From contig NC_092330.1 of the NCBI RefSeq assembly GCF_036785885.1, positions 10,202,525 to 10,266,524 on the forward strand: DNA of 64,000 nt, read 5' to 3'. Shown piece by piece: positions 1 to 61,355 of this stretch. The notes beneath the pieces are model-generated. The model saw only the letters and a program-made list of their open reading frames with translations. It was not told the origin of the DNA and did not search any database. The position numbers were made by a program, and so were the translations under genes. How positions within the stretch are numbered: the stretch's first letter is position 1; the number at the start of each line of letters is the position of its first letter. The stretch comes from Coffea arabica (lineage: Eukaryota; Streptophyta; Magnoliopsida; Gentianales; Rubiaceae).

Positions 1-1451
1 CCATATTTTCATAGGGTTTCAAGGTAGGTATATCAAGATGCCCTCTTTTCTTTTAATATTTGCATAAGAGTGGATTTAGGGCTTGATTTTGGTAGTTTTC
101 ATAAGAAATTTCATGGTTTGAGTGGTGATTCAAAATTTTCAGTTTTGATGGTGAAATTTTAGCTTTTATATGATGCTTTGAGCTTGGTCAGGATTTAGTA
201 GTTTTGCTATGTGAATCTTCTAGCTTTTACAAGTTATTTTGGCTTGCTTATGGAAAATTTCAGCTTGTAGTTGAAATTTTCAGCTTAGGATTTCAAATTT
301 TAGCTTTGTTGTGATTGATTTTGAGTTAGAAAATTTGATATTTTGAATGGTTTTGTGGCCTTAAACAAGTGTACTTTATAGCTTGTAACTTGTGGTTATG
401 ATTGAGGTTGGATTGATATGAATGTTGGTGTTGAGTTTGGATGGAAAAGTTAAGAAAATAAGAGGAAGTATTGCTGAAAATTTTCCCGCAGAAGACTCTA
501 AACAGTCTTGAAAAATCTGTTATATCTTGATGTAGAAAAATCCAAATTGAGTTTCGCTTATTGCATTTGAAACTAAATTTAGAATGCATTCTACCGTGAA
601 AATTTCAGAAATTTTCTCAATTCCTATGAATATCTACGATTTTTCAAAGTTGACTGAATTTTCACACCTGCTCTTTTTTTCTACTTGATGAAGCAGCAAC
701 TTGAAACTAGAATTCGACTGATTTATGGACAGAAAAGTATAAATATGTATTCTGGAAAATTGTAGTCTTTTCAATCTATTTTCCAATGGTATAAATTTTA
801 TAAATTTTGGACTTAAGAAACTTGCGATATGATTTTTCAAACAATGTCGTGCAAAACTAGAGAAAATTCTGTTTCTTAAACTTGTTCTTGCTTCCATTTC
901 CAACTTTAAGTTGGAGTTGTTAAATCATTTTGAGCTTGGTTTTATGAGTGGAATTGAGATTTAAATGAAAGGAAATGAGTTTCTTCAAATCATTTTAGGT
1001 CGGATAATTTTCAACTTTGTATTTTGAAAGTCTTGTTCTAATTTCTTCAAACATTTGACTATAATCGATGCTCTTGTACTCCAAATGACTTTTGCAACGT
1101 TGATTTAGTAAGCACATGAGGTTTCTTCCTCGATTGCAACAAGAAAATATTATATTTTGATAGTTTATACTGGCATAAAATTTGTAAATTGATGCATTTT
1201 CTAAATGAAGTTTTGAAACCTCAATTTCTTCATGTATTTTGGCTTTGTATTGCTAGTTTTTTAATATAGTATATGATCACAGGACTTGAGAGAGTTCAAG
1301 AGGACGAACCAGGGTTAAAGTGAAGGGTTTGAATTGATTGGTGAGTGTTCCAATTCATGTTATTTGATTATGTGTAACTTGAGAAAATGCTATTATTTGC
1401 TTAAGTGCTCTCCTTTGAATGACTGTTGTGATTTTCTTATGTTGTTAATCT

Positions 1452-12195: not shown

Positions 12196-12210
12196 GGAGG
12201 AAAAAAATAT

Positions 12211-12684
12211 GGGCAAATTTCACTTTACCCCCCTATGGTTTAGCATTTTTTTACATTACCCCCCTATAGTTTCAAAAGCTACACATAACCCCCTTATGGT
12301 TTGGATTAAAGTGTCAAAGTGATGGGAACGATCATTCATAACGGAGTCACCTAAAATGTCAAAAATACCCTTATGTAAAGTTGAAAATTATTTGTTAATC
12401 AAGGGGGGTCATGTGTATATTTTGAAAACCATAAGGGGGTTATATGGTAAAATATTAAACCATAAAGGGGTTATATGGTAAAATATAAAAATCATACGGG
12501 ATTAATGTGTCATGTATTTATAAGGGTAATTTTGACATTTTTAGAAGTTTCGTTACGAGTGACTATTTCCGTCACTTTGACACTTTAATCCAAACCATGA
12601 AGGGGTTATGTATAGTTTTTGAAACCATAGGGGAGTTATGTAAAAAAAATGCAAAATCACAGGGGGGTAAAATGTAATTTACCC
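12211..12684. mobile_element. Foldback MITE, Mutator-like, with 9-bp target duplication
   Basis: The ends are GGGCAAATTTCACTTTACCC and, inverted, GGGTAAATTACATTTTACCC. The inverted arms extend for well over 100 bp each, so most of the 474 bp can fold back. It is flanked by a perfect 9-bp duplication, AAAAAATAT, at 12202-12210 and 12685-12693, as Mutator-like elements make. The paralogous block near 27304 lacks it and shows an AT repeat there, so the unoccupied locus is in the same window. Confidence 0.9.
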
Positions 12685-13362
12685 AAAAAATATATGTTAT
12701 TTAGAACTATAAGAAGAATCAAATAAACTTAATAAACAAGGGCATTGTTGTCCAATGGGCATATGGGGGTGTTGATTTAGCCCCTCCCAGATAGAAATTG
12801 TTGAAGTTGACCAAAACAACAAGGACTAGAAAACAACGGCAATCAAACATTGACTAGAACAATATAATTCTTTTTTCAAAAAGAAATTAAAAAAAAAAGA
12901 AACTAAAATTTATATAGAAGTGTAAGAATAGACATGTCAATTGGACCTTATAAGCCAAATTTGACAGACACGAGTTCAACTCATTTCATGTAAAACAGTA
13001 TTTAAATCTAACCTCAACACAACTATTCTGACAAATATTTAGATCCATCCTCAACTCAATTAACTAAGTTTTGGGTCAAGTTTATATCCTCACTTTTGCT
13101 TCTTAGATTCCTACTTAATCGTATGTAATACATTCACTAAGCATGACCGTTTAGTGTAGTATATTGTATTTCACATGATTTTCTTTATCCCATCCTTTTA
13201 CAATGTACATTATTGCCATTAAATAAATTATTGTTTTATTATCAAAAAATCAAAATTAGCCTACATAAGAGAGTAATAATAGGAAAGAATCTGGAATTTA
13301 TATTCATAATTAACATCAGTTGTTCTTTAAATACTACCATCATACAGATATTAGGAGGTAGT

Positions 13363-33906: not shown

Positions 33907-34943
33907 TGATGTATGTGAAATAAAAAAATGGTTGAAAAATATATTAATATTATAAGTGAATAAAATTATGCAAATAATTCACGATGCAAAAAAGATGAGT
34001 ATATAACTAGTTTGTTGGGAGTGGGATACAAATTGGAACATATATTATAGCAGCCTAAGGGATTTGTCGTACAATTGCAGACGTGACTGACAAGAAGATA
34101 GGATTCATTGAGTTACAAAGACCACTCTAGTTGCAGGTCAAAACAGCCAAGTACATCTCAATTGCAGACCTGACCGAAAACAAGACAAATTGGCTTGCCA
34201 AAAAAAAAAAAAAAAGAAGACAAATTGGCTTGCAAAAGTGAATCAGGCATAATCTTACATGGATTTGAACTTCAAGACGCATATAATAAAATTGAAATTT
34301 GAAATTCGAATCCATTAAATTACTAAATTGTTAAGTATCAAATCTGATATAATTGAATATACATCATATTAAATGATAAGTAAATAATTCATAATTTATT
34401 TTTGAAAACAAATTTTGCATGAAAATTCAGTACCAGTTAATTAATTAAAATGTTTTATTTTTAGTTATTAAACGTATTTGAACATGTTAAGATCTAAACT
34501 CATTAAATTTAAATACTAAATTAAATTATTCAGCATGGCGTTAGTGTTGCTGATGACATTGAATTTGTATAGGTTTACAGAAACATCAACCAACTACAAC
34601 CTGGTACTATGCACAATTGCACAGGCTAAGAACCAAGATAGCTAGAAAAGAATAATCTTAGAAGGAGAACATTGAATTTCCTCTAAATTAATAGATTAGG
34701 ATATGGAATGCCAAAGATATTAGTAATAATATTAGAATCTTATTAACCATTACTTCTTATCTATTCATAATCAATGCAGATCTAACATTAATCCAACAAA
34801 TAGAAAGAAAAAGATTGCTAATCTTTCTATTGTTGTCGTATATAATAATTGAGTATACGAAAACAAACAACATTAAACTCTTCGAACTATCCAATACTTG
34901 GATAAAGTCAACCCAAAGTATATGAAATCACAAATAAAAGAAA
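33907..34943. other. Intergenic, no feature seen
   Basis: AT-rich with a poly-A run at 34200-34214. CAAATTGGCTTGC(C/A)AAA occurs twice (34186 and 34222). No gene is supported. Confidence 0.45.
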
Positions 34944-35306
34944 GGGTTAAAAACAAAAAAATCCCATATGGTATACCTAATACACAGAAAAGCTCCACGT
35001 AATTTCAAAACATACAAAACGACACCAGATGTTTTGAAATAAATTGTAAACTAATAGAATTCGTTAAACTTAACGAAAATTACGGTTTCGGTTGTTAAAC
35101 TTACCGGATTCCATGAAATTTACCGTTAAATTTATCGGATTCCGTTAAATTTTTCGTTACGTTTACCGGATTCTGTTAAATTTAACGAATTCTGTTAGTT
35201 TACCATTTAGTTCAAAACATGAGGTGTCATTTTGTATATGTTAAAATCATAAGGGGTTTTTTTGTGTAATAGGTATACCACAGGGTTTTTTTTTTGTTTT
35301 TAACCC
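34944..35306. mobile_element. MULE-type MITE, same family as 31032-31341
   Basis: The ends GGGTTAAAAACAAAAAAATC and, inverted, GGGTTAAAAACAAAAAAAAA are flanked by a perfect 9-bp duplication, TAAAAGAAA (34935-34943 and 35307-35315). The middle (about 35050-35200) repeats GTTAAA(C/T)TTA(A/C)CG-type words six or seven times. It is 363 bp and non-coding. Confidence 0.88.
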
Positions 35307-35315
35307 TAAAAGAAA

Positions 35316-36511: not shown

Positions 36512-37426
36512 AAGAGGGAGTTTTTAAATGAACTTCTCAAAGGATGGATTTTTGAGTCTCTTCCCAAAGGATGAAAAACACACCCAAGGAAATAGCTATT
36601 ACTTTGTTCGTGTGATAGAGGAAACCCATAAAGAGCTGATATGTTATGGGCAATTTCTTTTTTTTTTTTTTTACTTTCCCGTATTTAATTTATGTTAAAT
36701 ACAAAATGGTGCTAGTTTTCTTTTCGTAAAAATATTAGTATATCACTTTTTAAATTTTACATATAATTTATGTATTTAACATAAATTATATGATTCAGAG
36801 TAAAATGCCTATAAATAACTAATACTTTATTCATGTAATAGAAGAAACCCGTAAAGAGTGGATAATTTCTTTTTTTACTTTCACGTATTTAATTTATGTA
36901 AAATACAAAACCTACTAGTTTCCCTTTCGTAATAATATTCGTGTAGCACTTTTTGAATTTCACTTATAAACATTTATGTATTTAATATAAATTAAATGAT
37001 TGAAAGTAAAATGCTCATCAATAACTAGTACTTTATTCATATAATGAAAGAAACTCGTAAAGAACTGATATGTTATGGACAATTTTTTTTTACTTTCAAA
37101 TACTTCATTTATATTAAATACAAAACATGCTAGTTTTCCTTTCGTAAAAATATTTGTGTAACGGCTTTTAAATTTTATTTGCAAACATTTATGTATTTAA
37201 CATAAATTAAATGATTCAAAATAAAATGCCCATAAAAACCTGGTATTTGGTTCATGTAATAGAGACAAGCCATAAAGAGTTGGTACTTTATGGGATATTT
37301 TTTTAAAAAAATATTTAATTTATGTTAAATAGATAACCTACTAGTTTTTTTTATGGTAAGAAATTACTGTAACACTTTTTGAATTTTTAAAAACCCTTTG
37401 GGAAGTTAGTTTGAAAACTCCCTCTT
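36512..37426. mobile_element. Inverted-repeat-bounded element with four internal tandem units
   Basis: The left end AAGAGGGAGTTTTTAAATGA and, inverted, the right end AAGAGGGAGTTTTCAAACTA pair over about 30-35 bp (both continue ACTTC(T/C)CAAAGG). Inside are four units of 206-223 bp starting at about 36591, 36814, 37020 and 37234. Each has a TACTTTATTCATGTAATAGA-like start and ends with a TTTATGTATTTAACATAAAT-like stretch. No clear target duplication and no ORF are seen. The superfamily is unknown. Confidence 0.65.
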
Positions 37427-42993: not shown

Positions 42994-45900
42994 TATGTAA
43001 CAAAGCATCAAACTCTCATAACTCTGGACCAAAGCTGCTAAAAGCTTGCAACATCCATCCATGTTTTATTAACATTCATTGAGGAAAATATCCAAATATT
43101 CTGACGACCTAATAGAGGTGCCAGAGATAACGCATGATTGACTAGAATATGGCACCAGAATGACAGGGCATGCTGTCTCCTACAATTCAAAAGCTAGTGA
43201 AGAAACGCAGATGGACCAGCAAGACACTGTACCAAAAGCCATATAATGCAGGTCTTCCTATTGATTTGGCCTTCCCTTTGCCAAATCACCAATAAAATGC
43301 AATGACATGCAAATAGAAAGAGTGGGATTGGATCCTTCATATGGGAACTTTCCATGTTTAAATCTAAATCAATTCAAACACTTCTCAAGTCATCTTCTCT
43401 TGCAACACTTACATATGAATCAATCTCAGACCCCTACAATATACCCTTGATTTCACATGATAGATAGATTTGAATTAGCAGAAAGGTAGCTTTGGGCAAC
43501 ATAACCTTGAGATGGACCCTGTGGATGGGAGCTCATTCATCAAGATCTCTACAGATTGATTATGAAAACTAATTATTGTGACAGCCCCACCTCACCCTAA
43601 GGCAAACCAAAGGGTTCGGCGGACTGCCTGCCCAACTCTCGTCAGGACTACGGAGTCCATTCCCACAAATCCAACATAGTACGCGCGAAAGGATCTAAAG
43701 AAAATGAACAATCGGAAACTACATATATTTTCATTGGAGTCTTGAACAAATTAACATACAGTACAATCCGAGGTACTCATACTACACAAAATACAATTAG
43801 GGCTTCGTTTTCAAAAGAGCAAGTAAAATTAGGGTTTCCAACCATTGAGGAGCAATACAAAATATCTAACTAGCTCAACTTAGGCTTCAAAGTCACGGTT
43901 CCAAAGAGTGGTTCCCTGTAAGGAAAACAAAGGTAACAGAAAGGGATGAGTTTAAGCTCAATGAGGTACCAAACATATAGGGATAAAATCATGGCCTTTC
44001 ATGTTGAATCAATCAGATACATATACCGGATATACGGAAAGCATTTAAACACCATGGTTCAAAGGAAAAGGATACGAGTGGCTCTCAGGAGCCAGATTTC
44101 CATTTGCAGTACTTGATCCGGACCCGTTGACTCTCCGTCAACGTAATTAGAACCAACATGTCCGTAGATCCCACTTTACACCAATTTTCGTCCACCAAAC
44201 ATACCCTTACCGGGCCCGAACTCCAAACAGAAACAGAAGTGCTAATACTCGAGTATACCGGAATCAAGAATCTCAATACCCAAAGATTCCCAGAACAGAC
44301 TACTGTGGTTCGTTATCTAATCGACCAGGCCCTTGCCGGCCCGACTTGAGTCACTAGCCACAGGTGTTGAGCTCAGAGGTCACAGAAAGGTCATTGGATA
44401 CCAACCTCCAAACGACGTCCGAACAGATTCAGATACAGTTAACAGACTATACACAGTAAATAGGCATAGGGACAGACAAGAGAGCGAGTGTGATAAAGTA
44501 CACCCTCGTCTCCAACAGAATAAATAGATAGTACAGTCATTCAGATCACAGATTGCAAGTACAGAAATCAAGTTAAGTAACAAATAAGGGGAGTGGTACA
44601 CTCACCAGTTCAGGTACAGGTACTTCCAAAAATTTTCACTCAAAGTGGCCTAATCACCGTGAAACCCTAAGAATAACAAAGGTAAAACAATTGACATTTC
44701 TTCATCCAAAACCGAGTAAATAGGATGCATAAATGAGGTTCGATTACTAGTCAGGTACCTCTCCAAATTATATACTAGTACGAAAAATAAAAGACGGCTT
44801 AAGAATAAAAGAAAACGGTTGGTCCTAAGGACATACATGACCCCAAAACCCCTCACTCCTCTCAAAATCATACTTACAATGGTATACTAGCTCATATCTC
44901 AAGGTGAAATTGAAAGCGAGAATAATTCCAAGAAAACAGAATTTTTTCCAGTTTTGCACACCCCTAATTGAAAATCATATCTCAGGATTATTAAGTCCAA
45001 AATTGATAAAATTTACACCGTTGGAAAATAGACTCAAAGGGGTAAAATTTCTCAGAAGACACATTTAGAAGATTCAGATCACAAGCCAATCAAATTCGAG
45101 CCTCAAATTGCTGTCGTAACCAGAAAAGGCAGAACAGGTATACAATTTCGGTTAACTTTGAAAAATCACCATAAATCCCACAGACCAAACCAGAGACTGA
45201 AATTTACACGGTTCATAGCCCTGTGAATCTAGTTTAAAACACAACAAACGGAACTAAATTTCGATATTTCGACACCCAGATATTGCAGATTTCCCAGAAC
45301 TGCTCCGGGGTTCCTGCGAAAATTTTAACAGCGTTTCCCCTTGTTTTTCTTACTTTTCACCCTACAATTCAACACCAAATTCAACCCAAATCAACCACAA
45401 CCTCAAATATAATTCACAAGCTATTAAAAACATCTAATTAGGGTCACAATACCCTTCATATATAGTCAGTTACAACACAAGGTTAATAATGTAACCAAAA
45501 ACCAATTTAAAAGACAATAGGCCAAACAGGCAGGTTTGACGTCTCTCGATTTTTTGATCGCAACCTAAGCTAAGCTTATCGGATTGGGGTGTAATTTATA
45601 CCATTTCGAAGCTAACAGAAAGGGTTACAATGTTACAGAAGGTCACTCAGTCCAGTTCATAGTGGAACCAGGTCAAAAATGCAGTATACTAAACCAGAAC
45701 CGCAAAAACAGGTGAACAAACCGCATTCTGGTTAACGAACTGTAATTCAGGCTACCTAAATCCAAATCAAGTGATTCCAAAGCCATTCGAAAGCTAAGAC
45801 ATCAGGCTAAATTTCTTCAGAAGGCCTCAACAACCAATTCAGAAGTATTCTCAACCAAAATAGCCAATTACAGAAGCAATTCTCAAGTTCGGGTAAAAAC

Positions 45901-48839: not shown

Positions 48840-51157
48840 TGTGACGGCCCCACCTCCCCCTAAGGCGAACCAGAGGGTTCGGCGGCCGCCTGCCCAGCTC
48901 TCGCCGGGACTCAGTCACTCACTACAGTTCTCAACCCAATTACAATATAAATCTCAAAATTATCTCAAATTCTCCAATGATTACATATTACAAATGCAGC
49001 GGAAACTGATTCCAATCGTGGAACGTATACTTACATCCATATCAATTTCAAATATTTACACAAGACCAACTCATACATAAAATAGATCCAAACTTAAACT
49101 GTACACGATATAAGCCATCCAGTCACGTGAATAAGCACTCCAAGCTTTTCTTCACCTTGAGCCCTGTGGGGGGGGAAATAAAACATTTTTGGGGTGAGCT
49201 AGAAGCTCAGCGAGTAACCATTAAAATCAGTAATCAATTCAGTTTCACAGTCGTTCATTTCAGTGATGTCATGATTTCAAGATCAAATGTACATTTATTG
49301 CTTTCGTGAGCCAGCGAAATCGTTGTACTTAAACACCCAACGCTCCAAACAAACATTAAACAGTAAACAGTCAGTGGGGGAGCCATTTGCTCTAGATGAA
49401 CAGTACACAGAGGTGGAGACGTTGGTGTTCAGCACACGAATTCCAAGCACTCATTTAAGCCAAAACATGTCATGGGCCACATGCAAGCACTCATGATATG
49501 CAATCAAGTAAATAGTGCAAGAAACGGTTCATAAGAAGCTTTAACAATAGTTTGGGGTCACTCACCTCCACGGCTCAGAAATCATCCATTCAGCAAGCTC
49601 CAAGTAGTACTAGTACAGGTCAAGCTAGGAAAAAGTTCGAAAATGAAGGTTAAGCTCAAAATCAGAAAAATAGTTTTGACGTCATTTTGCGGTAATGGTG
49701 TCAATTTCACTATGATTATCGGATGGGGGTGTAAGACCCACCGTTTCGAAGCTATGAAACAGGGCTACAACAATGTAGAAGGCCACTCAATCCAAATCCT
49801 AGCACAACTAGGTCAAATATGCCAAAAATACCAAACCAGAACCACCAAAACAGGTTCACAAATCACACAATGCTGTAATGAGTCCAACTCAGTGTATACA
49901 GGTCCAAATGCTGAAATTCCAAAGGCATATGTTATCTAAGACATCCATCTACATTTCCTCAGAAGACACCAACAACAAAATCGAAACCAATTCCAGTCAA
50001 AACAAACGATTACAAGCGCAGTTTTCACATTCTGAGCAACCCAGATCAGCAATAGTAAAATCGACATATCTCACTCTACACTAATCCAAATGACCTGAAA
50101 TTTTTCAGGCACTTCAAACTCATCAATACCTACAACTTTTATGTTTTGAGAAAAGTCCAATTCGGCCTCTAACCCTATGATCTAAAATCGGACAGAATTA
50201 GGGGTTATGAACCCTAACTTTTCACAATTAATTCCAAACCCAAAATTGATTGCAAATATCAACAATTCACACCTACTAGTGTCATTATAGGCCATTGCCA
50301 ATCATCATAAACAACCACACCATCATAATCCAATTAAACCAGAAAAATCATCAATAAAATAAAAACTTCACTAAATCACTTCAAACCAAGATAAAAACCA
50401 GAAATTTCAGCACTTTAATCACTAATAAGCATAACTTAAGCTTCATTAAGTGCAAGAGGGAATTCACACACCACTCACCTAGTAACCAAGAGAGATAGAG
50501 ATATTGGACACCTTAGCTCTTCAAACAAACTTCACTAAACTACCTACTAGCACCCAAGGAAGGAATTTTATGGAGTAAAAACTAATTTAGGCAAGTAGTT
50601 TGGATGATTTGAGCTAGGAATTTGCCAAGATGTTGAAGAGTTTTGTCTTTCTTCTTGCTAGAGAGGGCCGGCCATCCAAAGGTAAGAAATGGTGATTTTT
50701 GGGCAATTTTTAAGATATTTAACCTTTGGTCAAAAAAAGTCAAAAATTGGAATAGTAAATCTTAAAGTAAAACCAATAAGAGGGTGACACTTGTCACCTC
50801 ATTAATGCAATCTTATCACTTCCTTTTTCCTCTCACATCAATCAAATCTCACTCTCTACTTATCTCTTAACACCCGATAAATTTTACACAGTATCCGAAA
50901 CTTAACCTTATTGGCCGAATTTTTCCGAACTTTTCGCACTAGTGGGTCCCACGTCCGTTGTTTATCCTTAATTTTTCAAAAACTCTCCAATACTAGAAAA
51001 ATCATCTAAAAACTCTATTTACTCATAAAAATTCCTCAGGAAAAATTTCCTAAGCCAGGAAATGCAGAAAACATGCTATTAAAGGAAATAAAACCCTCGA
51101 AAAAGATTAGGATTTTTTTTACGGGTTCTCAAACTCTTTTTTTTTCGGGGCGTCACA
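48840..51157 (-). mobile_element. Solo LTR-type insertion with variant terminus
   Basis: It starts TGTGACGGCCCCACCTCCCC and ends GGGGCGTCACA, flanked by a perfect 5-bp duplication, GGTTA (48835-48839 and 51158-51162). Most of the body resembles the other minus-strand LTRs, including a CGTTTCGAAGCTATG-like stretch near 49743. The usual GGGTTCTCACA end is replaced by GGGTTCTCAAACTC plus a T-rich tail and GGGGCGTCACA. It also lacks the conserved 19-bp palindrome, so it is a different subfamily. It is 2318 bp and non-coding. Confidence 0.85.
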
Positions 51158-51393: not shown

Positions 51394-52066
51394 ATGGATG
51401 CTTATTATTTTCAATTAAGATGTAGCATGGTGGTAGAATTCAAGGGGATAAATATAAGATCTATGTTGGTGGAGAGGTAGACTATTTTGATCTTTGTGAT
51501 GCCGATAGGATGTCAATGCATGAGATTAACGCTATGGTGAAAAAGTGTGGCTACAACAACGATGTCATCTTGTACTATTATCTTGATCCAAGAAGTGATA
51601 TCAACAATGGATTGAAAGAACTCCAAACTGACGAGCATATTAGACAGTTTTGTAGTTGGGTGGAGCAGTTCAAGTTGATGGAAGTGATATGCAACCATGT
51701 TCCAGAAGATGAGGTGTTAAAAATTCAAACAAAAACCATTGGAAAGCCACCAGATGTGCACAAGTCTACAGTGATAATTCAGGAAATTGATGATGGGGAT
51801 GAAGGTCAAACAATGAATGCATGTAATCATAAATTTGTCAAAACCTCACAATCTGTGAAGAAAAGGGGTTATATTCCGCGAAGATGGGCTGCTTTAGAGT
51901 GGAAGGATAGCACTCTACAAAAATAAGCAGTGCATGGAGCTACTGACCAAGGTGATACATCTACAATTGCAGCAGGCTTGCGCTCAACTTCTGGAGATGG
52001 TGAACCGATTGACTTAGAGAGAATTCAAAATGGGGGAGAAGGAGGCGAGTGTGATGATGGTGATGG
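51394..52066 (+). pseudogene. MuDR-like transposase N-terminal (PB1-like) fragment, decayed and interrupted
   Basis: From 51426 the frame reads HGGRIQGDKYKIYVGGEVDY and continues through MSMHEINAMVKKCGYNND, then a YYYLDPRSDI segment and WVEQFKLMEVICNHVP. This is the PB1-like N-terminal domain that I know from plant Mutator-type transposases. Upstream, TAG replaces an expected Trp and the frame from ATG 51394 is shifted. A TAA at 51924-51926 cuts the following region, which otherwise stays in frame and acidic to 52066, where the Tekay element enters. No MULE catalytic or zinc-finger domain remains in the window. It is not functional. Confidence 0.75.
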
Positions 52067-52311
52067 TGTGAGAACCCTCATTTTAAAACACAATTTCCTC
52101 AATTAATTGCCTTATTCTAGGATTTAAATCATATATTATATGCCCTTACATTAGCTTTTCTAGGTGTTACAATAATTTTCATGCATTACACTTCATTCCT
52201 TTTTACTTGAAGAAAAAAACATTTTTCTTGAATTGATTTTAATTATACACCACTTACATTTTACCAAGTGTCTTTATATTAGTGGTAGAAATCTTACATG
52301 TAGGATTATAG

Positions 52312-52473
52312 GTGTTAAAGAATTATTGGTGCACTTGGAAAGATTAGTTAGAAGTGTTAAAGTATTATTGGTGCACTTGGAAAGATTAGTTAGAAGTGTT
52401 AAAGTATTATTGGTGCACTTGGAAAGGTTAGTTAGAGGTGTTAAAATATTATTGGTGCATTTGGAAAGGTTAA
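52312..52473 (+). repeat. 42-bp tandem repeat in U3, four units
   Basis: Units start at 52312, 52354, 52396 and 52438 with GTGTTAAA(G/A)(A/T)ATTATTGG, each followed by TGCACTTGGAAA. The 3' LTR has three units (60963, 61005, 61047). They sit upstream of the TATA box, in enhancer position. Confidence 0.92.
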
Positions 52474-52570
52474 GACACCATTAGTCAAAGATTAAGAGAG
52501 AATTGGACAAGTAAGTGGACATGTGGCAAAATCCTAGCCAAGCATCTTGTTGGAACCAAGATTAGAAGAC

Positions 52571-52578
52571 TATATAAA
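52571..52578 (+). promoter_or_regulatory. TATA box of the 5' LTR
   Basis: GACTATATAAACTAGCC is a strong plant TATA context, repeated exactly in the 3' LTR at 61180-61187. Transcription would begin roughly 30 bp downstream. Confidence 0.65.
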
Positions 52579-54969
52579 CTAGCCAAAGCCTTCTTTTTTT
52601 CTTGAGTGCTGGCCGAAATTCTGGTTCAAGAGAGAGAGAAAAAGTGAGCCACATAATCTTGTTTTCTTACTCTAGCAAACCAAGAACAACAATCAAGAGA
52701 GAAAAAAAAAATCTGAATTAGTGAGAGAGTTCCTACAACTCCAAGTGCTTGATCCAAGCTTGAGGACTTACTTTGGTGAAGTGATTTTGGTGATTCAAGC
52801 TCACTATAAGAGAGGTATATGTTCTTTAAATCCTTGTTTTGATGATAGATCATGCACTTGAAAGTGTTAATAGCAAAGATACAAGTTGTTTGGTTGAGAT
52901 GTTGAGTTAGTTTCTTGAAGTAAATAAGTAGTAGCTAGGTTTCTTAGTATGCATACCAAGTGTATGATGAAATGTTTGATTCTTGTTCATGTTTGTTTAT
53001 GAGGTATTATTATGTTTTAAACCTCTTTTGAGCTAGAACTACCACTTGATATGATGATTGAGTAGAAAACATGTAAGGATGAAGATTGAACAAATGTTGA
53101 AAAGTGTAGGCTGGTTGCTTTGTCTAGGCTGGCCGGTTCTTGTAGGAGGGATTTCCCCTCAATCTTGTTGTTAAATTGTGTCCTAATCAAGCCTAATAAA
53201 CTAAGTTAAATATTGGTTAAGCCTATGAGCAAGTTGGAATGGAGTTGAAGCAAGTAAAGTGGTAATTTTGAACCATTAGTAGACTGTTTTAGGACTCTTG
53301 TAGTTATGGGATCATTATGGCTACCTTAGATCGTGTTGTATATTATATTGTGAACTCCATTGATTCTAAGTGACTTGAATCCTTGTATATGATTACTTGA
53401 GGAGTGAATTGGGTGAATTTGGATCAAAACTAATGAAGTTAGCCCTAGAACTAGAGTAGTTTGGTATAGGATTAATGTTGATCCAGGGTTGGAAAAACAG
53501 CCACCTTGTCTGAATTACTGTTGTTGATAGGAGATGAACCACGGTGTGATCTTGGTACCGTTGGAAAGCCCTTCGAGTCTAGTTTCCAACGTCACTGACG
53601 GCACCTAATTTCGACTTTTCTACAGTGAGTTATGACCGTTTTCCTAAGACTGCCAGGGCATGACTGTGCAACCCGAGAAGAAATCCTTAAGCATAATTGG
53701 AACTTTTCTTTTGCCAAACTTTCATGCACCTACTAAACTTGTTTTCTCATGAACTTTTACCATAGTTTGGACCTTGTTTGCATGACGGATTAAGTAGCTT
53801 AGACTACTCACTTGGTCTCTTATTAAGCCTAACCTAGTGGGGCATGAATCTAATTGTTAACGATTTCACTCGCTGCCCTAGGTTTGGGAAACGAAGGTGA
53901 CCGTAACTAAGACGTTTGACATCGATTGCTTCTTTTGATTGACAGGTGAGTGTTCCACTACCTGCTACCTGCTTATGTGAAATATTTGAATACTTGATTT
54001 ACGACTGTTTGAGCCAAACCCTGATTTGATAAAAGTGGAGGCGAGGGTGTACTTTATCGCACTCGTCCTCCTTCATTTTCACTGAGGCTCTGTATACTGT
54101 TATTGTGAAATGTGAATTCTCTATATGTGACCGTGCTTGAGTTGTTTGGGTGACATCCCATCTACTACTACTACTGTTTGGGTACCCAACCTCATAGGCG
54201 AGTCGGTTCTATCGAGCCAGCAAGGGCTTGGTCGAGAAGGCCGATAAACCTTGAGGACTGTTTACTGTTCACTGAAACCGGTATACTCGAGTATTACCTA
54301 ACTACTGTTTATGAAGTGCGGGCCCGGTGGGGGGTTGATTGGTGGACGGAGACAGGTGAAAGTGGTGTTCTACGGACTAAATATTCTGTGTATACAAGTG
54401 TTGACGGAGTGTCAACGAAGACATTTATGATCAAGCTCAAGGGAATTTTGGTTTTTGAAAGCCACCCGTATCCTTGAATTGAATTGTGGATTAATTGTTA
54501 TTGCATCAGAGGGTATTTACTTGATTACTCTATGCCTTAATTTGACTATGTGTTTACTTGTTTTACTTGGAACCTCACTGAGCTTTAGCTCACCCCACTC
54601 CCTTTGTTTTCCTTAACAGATCGGGGATGGACTAACGGTCAAGAGCTTGCTTAGCTTTGTTTTGCTTGAACTTGTAAATTTTATTAAGATGACTTTACCT
54701 TTTACTGTTGTAAGCTTGAATTTCTAAGTTTGACTTATGTTATGAAATTGTAGTATGAAGTGGTAAGTGTGACTCTTAGCTTGCCATATTAAGTTTGGAA
54801 AGTTGATTGATAGTTATGTGTTATTAGGGTTGTATAATTTAATTTGAAGTTATTTTCCCAGTTATTTTGAGTTGCTAGTTCTTTGATCGACTGAGTCCCG
54901 GCGAGAGCTGGGCAGGCAGTCCGCTGATACCCTAGGGTTCGCTCTAGGGAGAGGTGGGGCTGTCACAGT

Positions 54970-54981
54970 TGGTATCAGAGC
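54970..54981 (+). other. Primer-binding site (initiator Met-tRNA)
   Basis: TGGTATCAGAGC begins two bases after the 5' LTR end and is the standard plant retrotransposon primer site complementary to the 3' end of initiator Met-tRNA. It fixes the LTR boundary and the plus orientation. Confidence 0.93.
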
Positions 54982-55085
54982 CTAGGTTTGAATTAGCCTG
55001 GGCAAATTAGAAATTTCCGATTTGAGGGTTATATTTCATTATTTTTCCTTAAGAGTACTAAAGTTTATCTACACTTTTGTGTAGG

Positions 55086-55607
55086 ATGGACGGACCTAGC
55101 GGCCATAGTGATAGTCCTGTTGGTGAGAAGCCCCAAGGAGTACTCCCCATGATTAAGTATCAAATCCGGTCCGGAGGAGCTAGAGTTTATTGGAGCCCGT
55201 CAAACCGCTATAGGCGTTGCAAGTGCCGTCTTACTTATGCCTACCCTAATGAAGTAGTATTGGCGGTGGTAAAAGAGCGTAAGGAGCTTGCCAGGGATAA
55301 TGCTAGGCTTGAAGCCGAAGTGAAGCAACTAAAGGAAGCCAATAAGATGCAAGCCGAGCGGCTTAAGGACCTCGAGTATGATAACGTCGAGGGCCAAGAA
55401 AGGATTGACGATCTTTGCGCACAGTTGGAGGAAACTCAAGAACGCATGGTGACTAGGACCATGAAGGTGAGGACTAGGGCGGAGTCCATTCTGAATGTTT
55501 GTGACGACCTTCTAGGAGAAGCAAGTGATGAGGCTTCTTATATGGATATTGGCTCAGAAGATGAACCTATTGAGAGTGGGGGGTCAGCTAGTCCCGCCAC
55601 TGACTAG
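55086..55607 (+). CDS. Extra coiled-coil ORF upstream of gag (173 aa)
   Basis: This frame lies between the primer site and gag-pol. I chose the ATG at 55086 (MDGPSGHSD); the open frame extends only slightly further upstream and has no earlier ATG. Residues 1-50 are mixed, with Arg/Tyr-rich segments and a CKC at 45-47. Residues about 58-128 form a long charged coiled coil with heptad Leu/Val/Ile spacing (ELARDNARLEAEVKQLKEAN). Residues 141-166 are acidic. It has no Gag, protease, polymerase or chromodomain motif. Possible roles are nucleic-acid or capsid-related binding, or transcript regulation, but none can be shown. The intact frame in a young element suggests it is translated. It is separated from gag by 461 nt and lies in a different frame. 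Confidence 0.7.
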   Translation: MDGPSGHSDSPVGEKPQGVLPMIKYQIRSGGARVYWSPSNRYRRCKCRLTYAYPNEVVLAVVKERKELARDNARLEAEVKQLKEANKMQAERLKDLEYDNVEGQERIDDLCAQLEETQERMVTRTMKVRTRAESILNVCDDLLGEASDEASYMDIGSEDEPIESGGSASPATD

Positions 55608-55821
55608 GTCTTCACCATTTGGCTAGGATAGTGGATGATTTTGACATTGTACATAGACAGGTTAGGGGATGTGGTGACCTGGTGGTTGTATAGCTCCTTT
55701 TGACTACTTGTGTTAGGTTTTGCTTGGTATGACTATATCTGTACTTTTGAGGGCTCGTACTTTCTATTGTGGTCTCGTTATCTTGTAAGTGACTACTATG
55801 CGCCTTTTAATGTATAATACT

Positions 55822-55907
55822 TTGACTGTTGACCTTGATCTTTGACTGTTGACTGTTGACTGTTGATCGTTGACTTTTGACCTTTGACTTTAACCTTGGC
55901 TTTGACT
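55822..55907 (+). promoter_or_regulatory. Cluster of nine W-box cores (TTGACY)
   Basis: Nine TTGAC(C/T) hexamers occur in 86 bases, spaced roughly 7-21 bp, just before the gag start. TTGAC(C/T) is the core bound by plant WRKY factors, which respond to defence and stress. The pattern also looks like a local (TTGACTG)n expansion, so its function is an inference. Confidence 0.5.
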
Positions 55908-56068
55908 TTATTCCGTCATTAATTTTAACTGCGGTGCATTTCACTTGCTTATCGTGATTCCAATCTTGATTTCTTATGTGACTTTTCATTATATGTAATC
56001 ATCTTTCGTATATCATATTCGCTCACCCGATTAGTTGTCATACTTGGGCACTAGGCCATTGAGTAATA

Positions 56069-59000
56069 ATGGAAACGAGACAAAGACGTACTCGGGGCCG
56101 TGGACGAGAACCCAGGCAAGTCCAAGATCAAGGGGAGGAACAAGGTTCGGTGGCGAATCAAAACCAGGAACCCCGAGGTGATGGAGGGGACCAAGTAGCA
56201 ACAGCTATTAATCGAATGACTGATTTGTTGGCCCGCTTGGTTGACCAGCAGGGTCAAGTACCTGGTAACCAACAAAGGGACCCCGAAGTAGGCGAGGATA
56301 GGGCCCTGGAGCGGTTTCAAAAGTTTGCCCCTCCAAAAATTCTTGGAGGACCTGAACCCGAAGTTGCCGAGAATTGGTTCGAGCGAATGGAGGATATATT
56401 CGCCGCGTTGCATTACTCTGAAGAGAGGCAAGTTACCTTTGCCGTTTTCCAGCTGGAAGGCGCGGCCCGTTCCTGGTGGAACGTAGTAAGGGCCAAGTGG
56501 GAAAGGGAGCAAACCCCACGTACCTGGTTAAACTTCACGAGGGAATTCAATGAGAAATTCCTCCCACCCTTAATTCAGGAGAAAAGGGAGGATGAGTTCA
56601 TTAAACTGCGCCAAGGCACTTCAAGTGTGGCAGAGTATGAGACGCAGTTCACCCGACTTTCCAAGTTTGCCCCAGAATTGGTGGTAAGTGAGCAAAAGCG
56701 TATAAGGCGGTTTATACAAGGTTTGAATATAGAAATCCAAAAGGATTTGGCTGCCGCTCAAATTGACACCTTTAAGGATGCGCTTGAAAAGGCTCAACGT
56801 GTGGAGCAGGCCCGATCTCAAGTTCGGACCTTTCAGGCTAAGAAGCGTGGTGCACCCACCAGTACTCCTGGCCGAAGTGATCAGAATGTGCCACCTCCGA
56901 AGTTTGGAAAGGGTACGAGTGGAGCCCGAATTGCGGGGACACCAAGAGGTGGAGCTTCTTCTAGAGGAGCTCAAGGTGGAAGGGGACAGGGACAACAGAA
57001 AACTGTCTCCCTAGGAGTTCCCGCACCCACCACACGTGTAAGCTGTGGATATTGTGGTAAGCCAAATCATACCGAAGACAATTGCTGGAAAAAGTTGAAA
57101 AAGTGCCTTGTTTGTGGAAGTTCTGAGCACCAGATTGCCACTTGCCCTGTTAAGAATCGTGACGGGAACGTGGGTACCCAGTCGGAAAAGTCAAACCCTA
57201 AGCAACCTACCGCCAGTGCTAGTCGACCCAAAACCTCTGCTAGGGTTTTTGCTTTGGACCACCGGCGAGTTCCGGATTCATCGGAAGTAGTGGAAGGTAC
57301 GATCCCTATATTCCACCGCTTAGCTAAACTTTTGATTGACCCTGGGGCAACCCATTCTTTTGTGAATCCTGCCTTTATGTGTGGTATTGCTGTGAATCCT
57401 GTTAAGTTGCCATATGATTTAGAAGTGAAAACACCCACTGGGAGTCAAAGCCTGATTACCAATATGGTCTATAAAAATTGTGAGATTTGGGTAGGAGAAC
57501 GGAAGTTAGTGGGTGACTTGATAAGTTTAGACCTTAAGGGATACGATGTAATTATAGGCATGGATTCGCTAGCCCGTTATAACGCCCAATTGAACTGTAA
57601 AACAAAGGTGGTAGAATTCTCGATACCCGGAGAGGCAACTTTATGGTTGGACGTGAGGGGTAGGTTAGCCTCGTCTGCACTTGTTTCGGGAATCCGAGCC
57701 AGAAAGTTGTTGAGTAAGGGGGCGCAAGGCTACTTAGCCTTCTTAATTAATACTCCTGGAGATAAAGTGAAACTGGAGGATGTTGTAGTAGTGAATGAAT
57801 TTCCTGATGTCTTTCCCGATGAGTTGAAATCGATGCCATCAGAAAGGGAAATAGAATTTAAGATCGATTTAGTACCTGGAACTGCTCCCATTGCAAAAAC
57901 GCCATACCGAATGGCCCCTGCCGAACTTAAAGAGTTGAAACTGCAGTTACAAGATCTGTTAGAACGAGGGTTTATTCGAGAAAGTGAGTCACCGTGGGGG
58001 GCACCAGTGTTATTTGTTAAGAAAAAGGATGGTAGTTTAAGACTGTGCATTGACTATCGTGGCCTAAATGATGTTACGGTGAAAAATAAATATCCCTTAC
58101 CACACATTGATGAATTGTTTGACCAACTACAAGGGGCAGTAGTTTTCTCTAAGTTGGACTTGAGGCAAGGCTACTACCAGTTACGAATTAGGCAAGAGGA
58201 TATACCGAAGACTGCCTTTAATTCCAGATATGGTCATTTTGAGTTCGCTGTGATGCCTTTTGGTTTAACGAATGCCCCTGCTGCATTTATGGATTTAATG
58301 CATCGAGTCTTTAAACCCTACTTGGATCAATTTGTTGTAGTATTTATCGATGATATTTTGGTGTATTCCAAGACTCGAGAGGAACACGAACGGCATTTGA
58401 GGATAGTTTTACGGACCTTAAGGGAACATCAGTTATTTGCCAAGTTTAGCAAATGCGAGTTTTGGTTGGAGCAAATTTCTTTTCTAGGGCATATAATATC
58501 TAAAGATGGAATTTCTGTGGATCCAGTGAAAGTGGAGGCTGTAGCTGAGTGGAAACACCCGGAAACCCTGACTGAGGTCCGTAGTTTTCTAGGTTTAGCC
58601 GGGTATTACCGTCGGTTTATCAAAGATTTCTCCAAGTTAGCCGGTCCTTTAACCGACCTGACCAAAAAGCATGGTCAATTTGTCTGGAATTCTAAGTGTG
58701 AATCTAGTTTTCGGGAATTGAAGAAAAGGTTAACGTCGGCACCTGTTTTAGCTTTACCAAATGGGAGAGATAGTTTTACGGTATATACGGACGCCTCAAG
58801 GGAAGGTTTGGGGTGTGTTCTAATGCAAAACGGGAGTGTAATTTCCTATGCCTCTAGGAAGTTAAAACCTCACGAGCGAAATTACCCCACTCATGACTTA
58901 GAACTGGCCGCTGTAGTTTTTGCATTAAAGAAGTGGAGGCATTACTTATATGGAGTGACGTTTGAGGTGTATACCGACCATAAGAGTTTGAAATACCTAT

Positions 59001-60706
59001 TCTCTCAGAAGGAGTTAAACTTGAGACAGCGTCGGTGGGTGGAATTTCTTGAGGATTATGACTGTACAATTAACTATCACCCAGGCAAGGCTAATGTTGT
59101 AGCGGACGCTTTAAGCCGACAAGTGCAAATAGCTGGATTGATGGCTAAGGAATGGAATTTGCTGAAGGAAGTGAGTGAATGGAACCCGCGATTAGACCGA
59201 CAGAGGGTAATTTTCTGCAATATTACAGTAAGATCTGAATTGTTGGACCGCATTAAAGAAGCTCAAAGGAATGACCGGATGGTGCAAAAGTGGACAGAAA
59301 AAGTACAAAAAGGAGAGTTACAAGACTTTACCGTGAGTTCCGAAGGTATCTTAAAATTTCGTGATCGGATAGTGGTACCACAAGATGAAGTGATAAAAAG
59401 GGATATTTTGGAAGAGGCACATCGGTCCAAGTATACAGTACATCCTGGGAGTAGTAAAATGTATCAAGATTTGAAAAGGTTGTATTGGTGGGATAAGATG
59501 AAGAAAGAAATTGCTCAGTTTGTCCAAAAATGTTTGGTGTGCCAACAAGTGAAAGCTGAGCATCAAAAGCCTTCAGGTCTTCTGCAACCTCTGGAGATCC
59601 CCGAGTGGAAATGGGAACATATTACTATGGATTTCGTATCAGGATTACCCCGTACCCAGAAAGGTCACGACGCCGTTTGGGTAATAGTAGACAGGTTGAC
59701 CAAGTCTGCTCATTTCTTACCCGTAAATATGAAATATTCTATGGAGAAATTGGCCCAACTATACATGGATGAGATTGTGAGGTTACATGGAATCCCTGTA
59801 AGCATTGTGTCTGATAGAGACCCACGATTTGTGTCTCGTTTTTGGCAACAATTACAAGGAACCTTAGGGACCAAGCTGAACTTTAGTACTACCTATCATC
59901 CCCAAACTGATGGACAATCGGAGAGGACCATTCAGACACTTGAAGACATGTTGAGGACCTGTATTCTAGATTTTGGTGGAAGTTGGGGACAATACATGGT
60001 TTTGGTTGAATTCGCATACAATAATAGTTACCATTCTTCAATACAAATGGCACCGTATGAAGCTCTCTATGGAAGAAAGTGCCGATCACCAATATTTTGG
60101 GATGAAGTAGGAGAGAGAAGAGTTTTAGACCCAGTTGCAGTACCATGGATCGAGGATGCGTATGAGAAAGTGAAAGTGATACGTCAGAGGCTTCAGACAG
60201 CGCAAAGTCGACAAAAGAGTTACGCTGATAATCGACGAAAGGACTTGGAGTTTGAGATTGGGGACAAGGTATTCTTGAAGGTTACGCCACTTCGAAGTCT
60301 CACGGCAGGAAAAGGAAAGAAGCTTCATCCAAGATACGTAGGACCATTCAAAATCCTTCAACGAGTTGGAAACGTGGCATATCGATTGGAGTTACGAACA
60401 AGTCTATCCAGGGTTCATGATGTATTTCACGTGTCCATGTTGAAAAAGTATTATCCAGATCCCACTCATATACTGAAGCCAGAGGAAATTGACATTGATG
60501 AATGTTTGACCTACGAGGAAAGACCAGTGCAAATCTTAGATCGAAAAGTGAAGGAATTGAGGACTAAGCAAATACCCTTGGTAAAGGTCTTGTGGAGAAA
60601 CCATGAGGTGGAGGAGGCTACTTGGGAAGTGGAAGAGGACATTCGCGCCAAATACCCTAAGCTATTCAATGATGAAGGTGAGAATTTCGAGGACGAAATT
60701 CTTTAA
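56069..60706 (+). CDS. Gag-Pol polyprotein, Tekay/Del clade Ty3 retrotransposon (1545 aa, intact)
   Basis: This single frame encodes capsid, protease, reverse transcriptase, RNase H and integrase, used to copy and insert the element. Gag fills residues 1-360, with a capsid-type region at about 80-245. Two CCHC zinc knuckles follow (C326-C329-H334-C339 and C346-C349-H354-C359). The protease site is DPGATHS at 424 (usual form DSGA). The polymerase motif is FIDD with Asp at 761-762. RNase H has Asp at about 908 in YTDAS. Integrase has an HHCC zinc site (first His at about 1118) and the triad D1188, D1249, E1285 (D-35-E). A chromodomain-like end at about 1484-1532 ([20 protein letters not shown]) fits the Tekay/Del group, whose proteins I know to end this way. 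No stop or frameshift interrupts it. Antisense and small overlapping frames are shadows. Confidence 0.95.
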
Positions 60707-60717
60707 GGGGGAGAGAG
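60705..60717 (+). other. Polypurine tract
   Basis: AAGGGGGAGAGAG directly precedes the 3' LTR start (TGTGAGAACCC at 60718) and overlaps the gag-pol stop codon. It is the expected primer for plus-strand DNA synthesis. Confidence 0.9.
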
Positions 60718-61355
60718 TGTGAGAACCCTCATTTTAAAACACAATTTCCTCAATTAATTGCCTTATTCTAGGATTTAAATCATATATTATATGCCCTTAC
60801 ATTAGCTTTTCTAGGTGTTACAATAATTTTCATGCATTACACTTCATTCCTTTTTACTTGAAGAAAAAAACATTTTTCTTGAATTGATTTTAATTATACA
60901 CCACTTACATTTTACCAAGTGTCTTTATATTAGTGGTAGAAATCTTACATGTAGGATTATAGGTGTTAAAGAATTATTGGTGCACTTGGAAAGATTAGTT
61001 AGAAGTGTTAAAGTATTATTGGTGCACTTGGAAAGGTTAGTTAGAGGTGTTAAAATATTATTGGTGCATTTGGAAAGGTTAAGACACCATTAGTCAAAGA
61101 TTAAGAGAGAATTGGACAAGTAAGTGGACATGTGGCAAAATCCTAGCCAAGCATCTTGTTGGAACCAAGATTAGAAGACTATATAAACTAGCCAAAGCCT
61201 TCTTTTTTTCTTGAGTGCTGGCCGAAATTCTGGTTCAAGAGAGAGAGAAAAAGTGAGCCACATAATCTTGTTTTCTTACTCTAGCAAACCAAGAACAACA
61301 ATCAAGAGAGAAAAAAAAAATCTGAATTAGTGAGAGAGTTCCTACAACTCCAAGT
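60718..61355 (+). mobile_element. 3' LTR (5' part) of the Tekay element, cut by an insertion
   Basis: It matches 52067-52746 at every position I compared, except that one 42-bp unit is missing (638 against 680 bp). It stops at CTCCAAGT, where a minus-strand LTR begins at 61356. The rest of this LTR must lie beyond the window. The near-identity to the 5' LTR means the element inserted recently. Confidence 0.93.

What the first reader, a model, noticed from the sequence alone, without database searches (positions are those of the whole stretch)
55086..55607. Extra coiled-coil ORF before gag in a young Tekay-clade element
A 173-residue intact frame with a long charged coiled coil and an acidic tail lies between the primer site and gag-pol. 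I know of no standard Tekay/Del gene in this position. Its survival in an element with near-identical LTRs and an intact polyprotein suggests selection or very recent movement. It may be a lineage-specific accessory protein.
Basis: partly seen in the sequence, partly recalled or inferred. Interest (0 to 1): 0.72.

Follow-up and report, generated by a model that had tools for sequence, protein, structure and literature searches.

The report
Conserved extra gene in plant retrotransposon
A large family of jumping genes in this plant genome carries, in front of its usual genes, a small extra protein gene that natural selection has kept intact and that is probably read from a spliced message, which makes it a likely but untested helper of the element.

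Summary
The 173-codon frame is real and is a gene. In the window's own 1.2 Gb genome 150 colinear relatives were scored (a cap) at 63-100% protein identity. Of 60 fetched copies, 52 align ungapped over all 173 codons. For 41 distinct intact copies omega is 0.296; omega = 1 fits about 206 log-likelihood units worse. Constraint is somewhat weaker than gag's. Relatives whose gag is only 63-67% identical carry a homologue at 31-38% identity in the same place, 4 of 4 tested. Recent movement therefore does not explain the open frame.

New anatomy: a branch-point-like TACTAAA, a pyrimidine-rich tract and TGTAG|G end one base before the ATG; the AG is kept in 50 of 52 copies. A donor-like GT in the LTR, kept in 13 of 13 alignable copies, closes an ATG-free stretch. 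The frame is probably translated from spliced mRNA; no transcript was available.

Tekay 5' extra frames are already published for sunflower and grasses, so the position is not unprecedented. My searches listed neither this protein family nor its spliced leader. Function is unproven.

The parts
52067..54967 (+). 5' LTR, about 2.9 kb; ends read from TG...CA, the primer site and the 3' LTR copy
   Evidence: 681 bases at its start match 60717-61355, 639 sites with no mismatch plus one 42-bp gap
52571..52578 (+). TATA-like box TATATAAA; transcription start inferred near 52600
   Evidence: sequence; TATATAAA in L095, L098, L099, mostly TATTTAAA or similar in the other eight aligned copies
52600..52814 (+). 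inferred exon 1, an ATG-free leader from the LTR (start approximate)
   Evidence: no ATG in the window and in 10 of 11 aligned copies, L106 has one; 4.3 expected from composition; it lies in the longest ATG-free run of the LTR, 298 nt
52815..52816 (+). inferred splice donor, GAGAG|GTATAT
   Evidence: GAGAGGTA identical in 11 of 11 aligned copies; of two partly aligned ones L109 keeps it and L111 has GAAAG|GTAAGT; 7 of the 20 fetched did not align; third best of 182 GT sites with a rough recalled matrix
52815..55084 (+). inferred intron, 2270 nt, contains the primer site
   Evidence: inference from donor and acceptor; holds all 43 ATGs of the unspliced leader
54970..54981 (+). primer-binding site TGGTATCAGAGC
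   Evidence: sequence; match to initiator tRNA-Met recalled
55056..55084 (+). inferred 3' splice site: branch-point-like TACTAAA, pyrimidine-rich tract, TGTAG
   Evidence: each base 81-100% identical to the window in 26 other intact copies, TGTAGG 100%; AG in 50 of 52, no other AG at -20 to -4 in 51 of 52
55086..55607 (+). additional ORF (aORF), 173 aa
55149..55253 (+). aORF residues 22-56: basic core with W36, C45, C47, Y53
   Evidence: residues 1-60 alone find all four diverged homologues, E 1e-7 to 1e-11
55248..55535 (+). aORF residues 55-150: one long helix, coiled coil over 58-124
55524..55604 (+). aORF residues 147-173: acidic tail, low-confidence in the model, weakest constraint
55628..55830 (+). 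conserved non-coding part of the spacer before gag
   Evidence: ten 20-nt blocks 0.82-0.99 identical to the window over 32 copies; no RNA-structure signal
56069..60706 (+). gag-pol, one 1545-aa frame
60705..60717 (+). polypurine tract
   Evidence: sequence
60718..61355 (+). 3' LTR, first part only; broken by another LTR at 61356

Best explanation
The frame is a genuine accessory gene of a Tekay-type chromovirus family. Shown by comparison: it is conserved in length and frame, is under purifying selection somewhat weaker than gag's, and is shared with clearly distinct relatives. Inferred from conserved sequence: it is translated from a spliced subgenomic RNA in which a short ATG-free leader made from the LTR is joined one base upstream of the aORF start codon, while unspliced RNA keeps the primer site and serves as genome. 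Inferred from composition and fold: the product is a dimeric or oligomeric coiled-coil protein with a basic, cysteine-bearing N-terminal core that could bind nucleic acid, and an acidic tail. Proposed role, least certain: it acts early and in trans on the element's own unspliced RNA (nuclear export, stability or loading into Gag particles), in the manner of retroviral Rev or the CERV protein of Cer1. I give about 0.97 to the coding-and-selection claim, 0.7 to the splicing and 0.25 to the Rev/CERV-like role.
For: Selection: median pairwise dN/dS falls from 0.355 (dS 0.05-0.1) to 0.174 (dS 0.8-1.5); heterozygosity by codon position 0.160, 0.144, 0.356. ML omega 0.296, lnL -6824.8, against -7030.6 for the best omega = 1 fit over eight kappa values. 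By region the JC ratio is 0.124 in the coil and 0.368 in the tail. Depth: homologues upstream of gag in 4 of 4 diverged leaders tested, 76.6-90.9 bits against at most 22.7 for 100 shuffled queries; the non-coil residues 1-60 alone reach E 1e-7 to 1e-11. Linkage: 37 of 40 DNA-matched copies have gag within 1.5 kb downstream. Splicing: acceptor AG 50 of 52, TAGG 48 of 52; near-invariant context; donor GT in 13 of 13 alignable copies of 20 fetched; donor at the end of the longest ATG-free run of the LTR; an AG four to five bases before the start codon in 4 of 4 diverged leaders. Fold.
Against: No transcript or ribosome data were available. A whole-genome search for the predicted exon junction with up to one mismatch found two places, both unrelated DNA, so no processed copy supports the junction; an RNA without the primer site is not expected to leave one by normal reverse transcription. 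The donor is only moderate (A at +5), and two better-scoring GT sites lie downstream at 53946 and 54763. One aligned copy (L106) has an ATG in exon 1; L091 has lost the acceptor AG and in L074 it is shifted by one base. The AG at 56053 before gag is lost or shifted in 5 of 32 copies and has no clear pyrimidine tract, so how gag is translated past many upstream ATGs is unexplained. aORF dN/dS exceeds gag's in all five bins over 23 copies, e.g. 0.220 against 0.169, and on ten matched copies 0.464 against 0.418. 6 of the 52 full-length copies have internal stops; 2 of the 4 diverged homologues have stops inside the matched stretch. The role itself was not tested.
Confidence: 0.7

Rival explanations
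1. The protein is a cytoplasmic Gag partner, particle-assembly factor or RNA chaperone rather than a nuclear regulator; it works by coiled-coil contact with Gag or RNA.
For: Same conservation data; linked to gag in 37 of 40 copies; the long helix is a natural interaction surface.
Against: Not tested directly. Two copies (L029, L035) carry an aORF last third 72% identical to the window while spacer and gag are 86-96%, so part of the aORF seems to be exchanged independently of gag.
Confidence: 0.25
2. The protein counters host silencing, for example by binding double-stranded or small RNA or by acting on chromatin of its own copies.
For: The sunflower study suggests a role of Tekay aORF proteins in RNA-silencing modulation, from weak structural similarity of grass aORF proteins to a DRBM protein (PMC11728184). 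The N-terminal core is basic.
Against: No dsRNA-binding or other known domain here; the model has no resolved fold besides one helix.
Confidence: 0.2
3. The aORF is translated from the unspliced RNA by internal initiation or shunting, and the conserved sequence before the ATG is a translation or packaging signal, not a splice site.
For: No transcript shows splicing; no genomic junction copy; gag too must be reached past many ATGs, so the element may have some internal initiation.
Against: The conserved block has the order and spacing of a plant 3' splice site with an AG-free zone upstream, and the ATG-free leader ends exactly at a conserved donor-like site.
Confidence: 0.25
4. The open frame is a by-product of recent amplification and is not functional.
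For: The window copy is young: no LTR mismatch over 639 sites, and two further genomic copies of the frame are identical.
Against: omega 0.296 over 41 copies with a 206-unit likelihood difference from neutrality; homologues at 31-38% identity in other Tekay-type elements.
Confidence: 0.02

Closest known systems
5' additional ORF of Tekay group 2 in sunflower, Tekay 13-2 (PMC11728184; abstract, passages and section 2.5 seen)
   Same: Forward frame between 5' LTR and gag of a Tekay chromovirus, conserved through its group (500 of 523 elements in the paper), no known domain, some well-predicted helices.
   Different: 402 aa, 15.9% proline and 92.5% predicted disorder there, against 173 aa dominated by one helix here. 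Sequence similarity could not be tested because its letters were not available to me. The passages seen do not mention splicing for it.
5' additional ORFs of grass Tekay-type elements (RIRE3, RIRE8, Retrosat-2, maize Tekay, Sb7), as cited in PMC11728184
   Same: Same position and orientation; nuclear localisation predicted there; long helix in the models of maize Tekay and Sb7.
   Different: The paper finds no amino-acid similarity between them and the sunflower protein; relation to this protein not tested.
CERV of Cer1, a Ty3-type element of C. elegans (PMC10309623, passages seen)
   Same: Accessory protein from a spliced mRNA of a Ty3-type element, with a predicted leucine zipper; consensus acceptor sequences precede its predicted initiator ATG in related species.
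   Different: 517 aa from five exons overlapping the polyprotein; structured G and M domains; nuclear export role shown by experiment. No homology claimed here.
Spliced subgenomic RNAs of EVADE and Ogre (PMC12786077, passages seen)
   Same: Plant LTR elements that use splicing to express part of their proteins.
   Different: There the splicing concerns gag-pol; here it is inferred to express a separate accessory frame from an LTR leader exon.

Membership tests
Tekay (Del) chromovirus | gag-protease-RT-RNase H-integrase order in one frame | tested here: met
Tekay (Del) chromovirus | chromodomain at the integrase C-terminus | tested here: inconclusive
   Chromo at residues 1488-1532, E 5.3e-5, but 23.5 bits against a cut-off of 25.1
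Tekay (Del) chromovirus | clustering with reference Tekay elements in RT and integrase trees | not tested
Tekay 5' aORF (as a kind) | forward frame between primer site and gag, conserved in most members of the family | tested here: met
Tekay 5' aORF (as a kind) | sequence or structural similarity to the sunflower or grass proteins | not tested
Tekay 5' aORF (as a kind) | nuclear localisation signal | not tested
   only net charge was computed
GRF-type zinc finger with coiled coil | zf-GRF or another curated zinc-finger domain match | tested here: not met
   not among the families listed for P0001, for the 25 families shown over 27 members, or for three diverged homologues
Rev/CERV-like export regulator | made from a spliced RNA of the element | tested here: inconclusive
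   conserved splice-site-like sequences; no transcript, no junction copy
Rev/CERV-like export regulator | self-association | tested here: inconclusive
   coiled-coil prediction only
Rev/CERV-like export regulator | nuclear, binds and exports unspliced genomic RNA | not testable with these tools
   needs experiments

The most novel reading that the evidence does not exclude
Plant Tekay chromoviruses contain an old, vertically kept Rev-like regulatory gene: a coiled-coil RNA-binding protein made from a spliced leader mRNA that governs the fate of the unspliced genome. Plant Ty3-type elements would then have the two-phase, splicing-controlled expression programme known from complex retroviruses and Cer1.
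Probability: 0.2. Interest if true: 0.85.

Novelty: new variant of a known kind. Interest (0 to 1): 0.6.

Why it matters
Tekay elements are among the most abundant parts of many plant genomes, and reviews leave the origin and function of extra frames in such elements open (PMC7264820, PMC11728184, parts seen). This case offers codon-level constraint measured over dozens of copies, and a specific splice junction that one RT-PCR or one long-read data set can confirm or reject. A large published survey counted extra frames only from 250 codons up (PMC6317226), so genes of this size fall below its threshold. If the protein handles the unspliced RNA, plant Ty3-type elements would share an expression strategy with complex retroviruses.

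Tried and rejected
Degenerate GRF zinc finger plus coil: suggested by the RC-x-C core; rejected, no such Pfam match listed. Known domain by sequence: only generic coiled-coil matches, below cut-offs in Pfam and of helical or coiled-coil chains in the PDB. Homologues outside this genome: pattern matches but no confirmed relative in viral contigs or genome contigs; neither is a plant collection, so this says little. Acceptor before gag: the AG at 56053 is kept in 27 of 32 copies, without a clear pyrimidine tract; not accepted. Conserved RNA structure in the spacer: z between -0.05 and -1.58 against column shuffles in four stretches; not supported. Genomic copy of the spliced junction: two one-mismatch hits in unrelated DNA, none in the fetched DNA. 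A structure search of the model was not run because its confident part is one helix. I looked for Tekay relatives without the aORF; the four diverged leaders that I could fetch carry it.

Full report
What was checked. The frame at 55086-55607 translates to 173 residues without a stop and lies between the primer site (54970-54981) and a 1545-codon gag-pol frame at 56069-60706. Pfam finds gag, protease, RT, RNase H, integrase, an SH3-like tail and a chromodomain match just below its cut-off, the order of a chromovirus. The Tekay label was not tested against reference sequences; it rests on architecture and long LTRs. The LTRs agree over 639 sites without a mismatch, with one 42-bp repeat-unit gap, but only the first 681 bases of the LTR can be compared, because the 3' copy is broken at 61355 by another LTR.

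The genome. The window is part of a 1.198 Gb genome in 131 contigs. My hits fell on contigs C1 to C22 and once on C35; for 21 of C1 to C22 a length was shown, 40.5 to 77.3 Mb. Published Coffea arabica assemblies have 22 chromosomes and about 1.1 Gb (PMC10805892 passages; PMC12307819 start of abstract), so C. arabica is a reasonable guess. I did not test it and nothing below depends on it. The DNA search scored 40 copies of the frame out of 1140 candidates. The protein search scored 150 of 7914 candidates at 63-100% identity; each row covers at least 151 of the 173 residues, and 94 of 150 show no stop by my count. Both are lower bounds by the tool's own statement.

Selection. I fetched 60 copies: 40 from the DNA search and 20 of lower identity picked among rows without stops, a biased choice. 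Of the 60, 52 align over all 173 codons without a gap and 51 of these end in a stop codon at the same place; 46 have no internal stop and 41 are distinct. Dropped before the counts were 8 not full-length or gapped, 6 with stops and 5 duplicates. Pairwise dN/dS (Nei-Gojobori) falls with depth: median 0.558 for dS up to 0.05, 0.355 at 0.05-0.1, 0.295 at 0.1-0.2, 0.296 at 0.2-0.3, 0.264 at 0.3-0.5, 0.228 at 0.5-0.8 and 0.174 at 0.8-1.5, as expected of old constraint with neutral decay on the youngest branches. Heterozygosity by codon position is 0.160, 0.144 and 0.356. A codon model on the 41 gives omega 0.296, lnL -6824.8; the best fit with omega 1 over eight kappa values is -7030.6. Against gag: over 23 copies with both regions alignable, aORF ratios are higher than gag's in each of five bins (0.376/0.227, 0.300/0.213, 0.239/0.169, 0.220/0.169, 0.228/0.197), and for ten copies with both intact, of 17 examined, omega is 0.464 for the aORF and 0.418 for gag. 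The aORF is thus constrained, but somewhat less than gag. By region the JC ratio is 0.331 at residues 1-21, 0.175 at 22-56, 0.124 at 57-124, 0.106 at 125-146 and 0.368 at 147-173. Neutral simulations from the window copy at a p-distance of 0.235 keep 56% protein identity, and 105 of 3000 stay open; a real copy at 0.231 (L078) keeps 70%.

Depth. A gag search scored 117 of 30003 candidates. All four contain a homologue of the aORF at 31-38% identity, E 3e-27 to 9e-22. L114 and L115 are open over 178 residues; L116 has a stop after 167 residues, before the end of the matched stretch, and L117 has stops inside. Bit scores are 76.6-90.9 against at most 22.7 for 100 shuffled queries, and the non-coil residues 1-60 alone give E 1e-7 to 1e-11 in all four, so this is not a coiled-coil artefact. 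Invariant over ten aligned proteins including three of the diverged ones are, among others, Y25, Q26, W36, C45, Y53, V57, V58, E64 and C139. In all four leaders an AG stands four to five bases before the start codon. The gene therefore predates the split of these families.

Anatomy of the protein. In the window copy residues 22-56 are basic (+7) and hold C45 and C47, residues 58-124 score as a coiled coil with asparagines at core positions 72, 86 and 100, and the tail is acidic (-8); the register is the same in 41 of 41 copies. AlphaFold2 from the single sequence gives one helix 55-150, mean pLDDT 74.4, pTM 0.38, with the N-terminal part unresolved. No curated domain passes its cut-off (in one search only the first member's table shows cut-offs), and PDB searches return helical or coiled-coil chains.

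Expression. In unspliced RNA starting near the TATA-like box, 43 ATGs precede the frame. Directly before it stand TACTAAA, a pyrimidine-rich tract and TGTAG|G, then ATG. These 30 bases are each 81-100% identical to the window in 26 other intact copies, the last six 100%, while positions in the middle of the leader fall to 12-50%. The AG is present in 50 of 52 full-length copies and in 17 of 19 of the most diverged ones; no other AG falls at -20 to -4 in 51 of 52. Upstream, the longest ATG-free stretch of the LTR (52521-52819, 298 nt) ends at a donor-like GAGAG|GTATAT at 52815. I fetched this region for 20 copies. In the 11 that align well GAGAGGTA is identical, and 10 of the 11 have no ATG in the inferred exon. 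Two more align in part: L109 keeps the same site, L111 has GAAAG|GTAAGT there. Seven do not align and say nothing. The donor is third of 182 GT sites with a rough recalled matrix; the two better ones have 30 and 42 ATGs before them. The simplest reading is a spliced mRNA with an ATG-free leader joined one base before the aORF ATG; the 2270-nt intron would contain the primer site, so only unspliced RNA could serve as genome. This is inference. A whole-genome search for the junction found only two unrelated one-mismatch places. I found no convincing acceptor before gag, so gag translation remains unexplained.

Mechanism and rivals. I commit to an accessory protein expressed from spliced RNA. For its action I rank handling of the element's own unspliced RNA first, by analogy with Rev and CERV (PMC10309623, passages), then a Gag partner, then a silencing antagonist as suggested in print for Tekay aORFs. 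None of these was tested. Two copies (L029, L035) match the window at 91-92% in the first third of the aORF, 84% in the middle, 72% in the last third and 86-96% in spacer and gag, which suggests recombination inside the gene.

What is known. Tekay 5' aORFs are published: sunflower Tekay group 2 has a 402-aa one in 500 of 523 elements, and grass elements have others without amino-acid similarity to it (PMC11728184, abstract, passages and section 2.5). Vicient and Casacuberta (PMC7264820, first of three parts read) note frames upstream of gag in general. The survey PMC6317226 (passages) counted extra frames of at least 250 codons. A review says plant LTR elements generally lack introns, with Ogre and EVADE as exceptions (PMC12786077, passages). 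My nine answered paper searches (open-licence PMC papers, of which I saw listings and the parts named here) showed nothing that describes this protein family or a spliced leader for it. Steinbauerova et al. 2011 was not read.

Verdict. It is a new variant of a known kind, with a sharp and cheap test for its expression.

Noticed in passing
window 61356 onward and L041:881-4966: The 3' LTR is interrupted by about 4.1 kb that begins with an LTR end of a related family in reverse orientation. The LTR resumes at L041:4967 with about 92 bp present on both sides, followed by a second internal region, 99.97% identical over the 3.5 kb compared.
   Followed up: partly
G000:C10:28772893, 28781529, 28790165: Three copies of the frame spaced exactly 8636 bases apart, as in an LTR-internal-LTR tandem array.
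   Followed up: no
window 52306-52472 and 60957-61081: A repeat unit of about 42 bp in the LTR upstream of the TATA-like box; the two LTRs differ by one unit and by nothing else over 639 sites.
   Followed up: partly
L029, L035: Mosaic copies: the last third of the aORF is 72% identical to the window, the first third 91-92% and the spacer behind it 86-90%.
   Followed up: partly
window 55628-55830: Non-coding spacer behind the aORF is conserved (7 of 10 blocks of 20 nt at 0.90 or more) without an RNA-structure signal; a packaging or other cis signal is possible.
   Followed up: partly
window 51510-51926: A 138-aa open frame just upstream of the element, in the DNA it lies in; by eye like a piece of a transposase-type gene, not searched.
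   Followed up: no
window 12210-12685, 34943-35307, 36590-37387: Two imperfect palindromes (73-76% identical to their own reverse complement) and a tandem repeat with units of about 215 bp.
   Followed up: no
window 1451-1530, 43576-43649, 48840-48919: Short stretches that match, in reverse orientation, the last 80 bp or so of this element's LTR; longer LTR-like similarity extends from them to about 4921, 46970 and 51106.
   Followed up: no
L112 and L113 (C1 and C2): The two chance junction hits are one homologous pair, 96.5% identical over 2 kb, as might be expected of homoeologous chromosomes.
   Followed up: no
L111, donor position: A diverged LTR copy has GAAAG|GTAAGT where the window has GAGAG|GTATAT: the sequence changed but stayed donor-like.
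   Followed up: no
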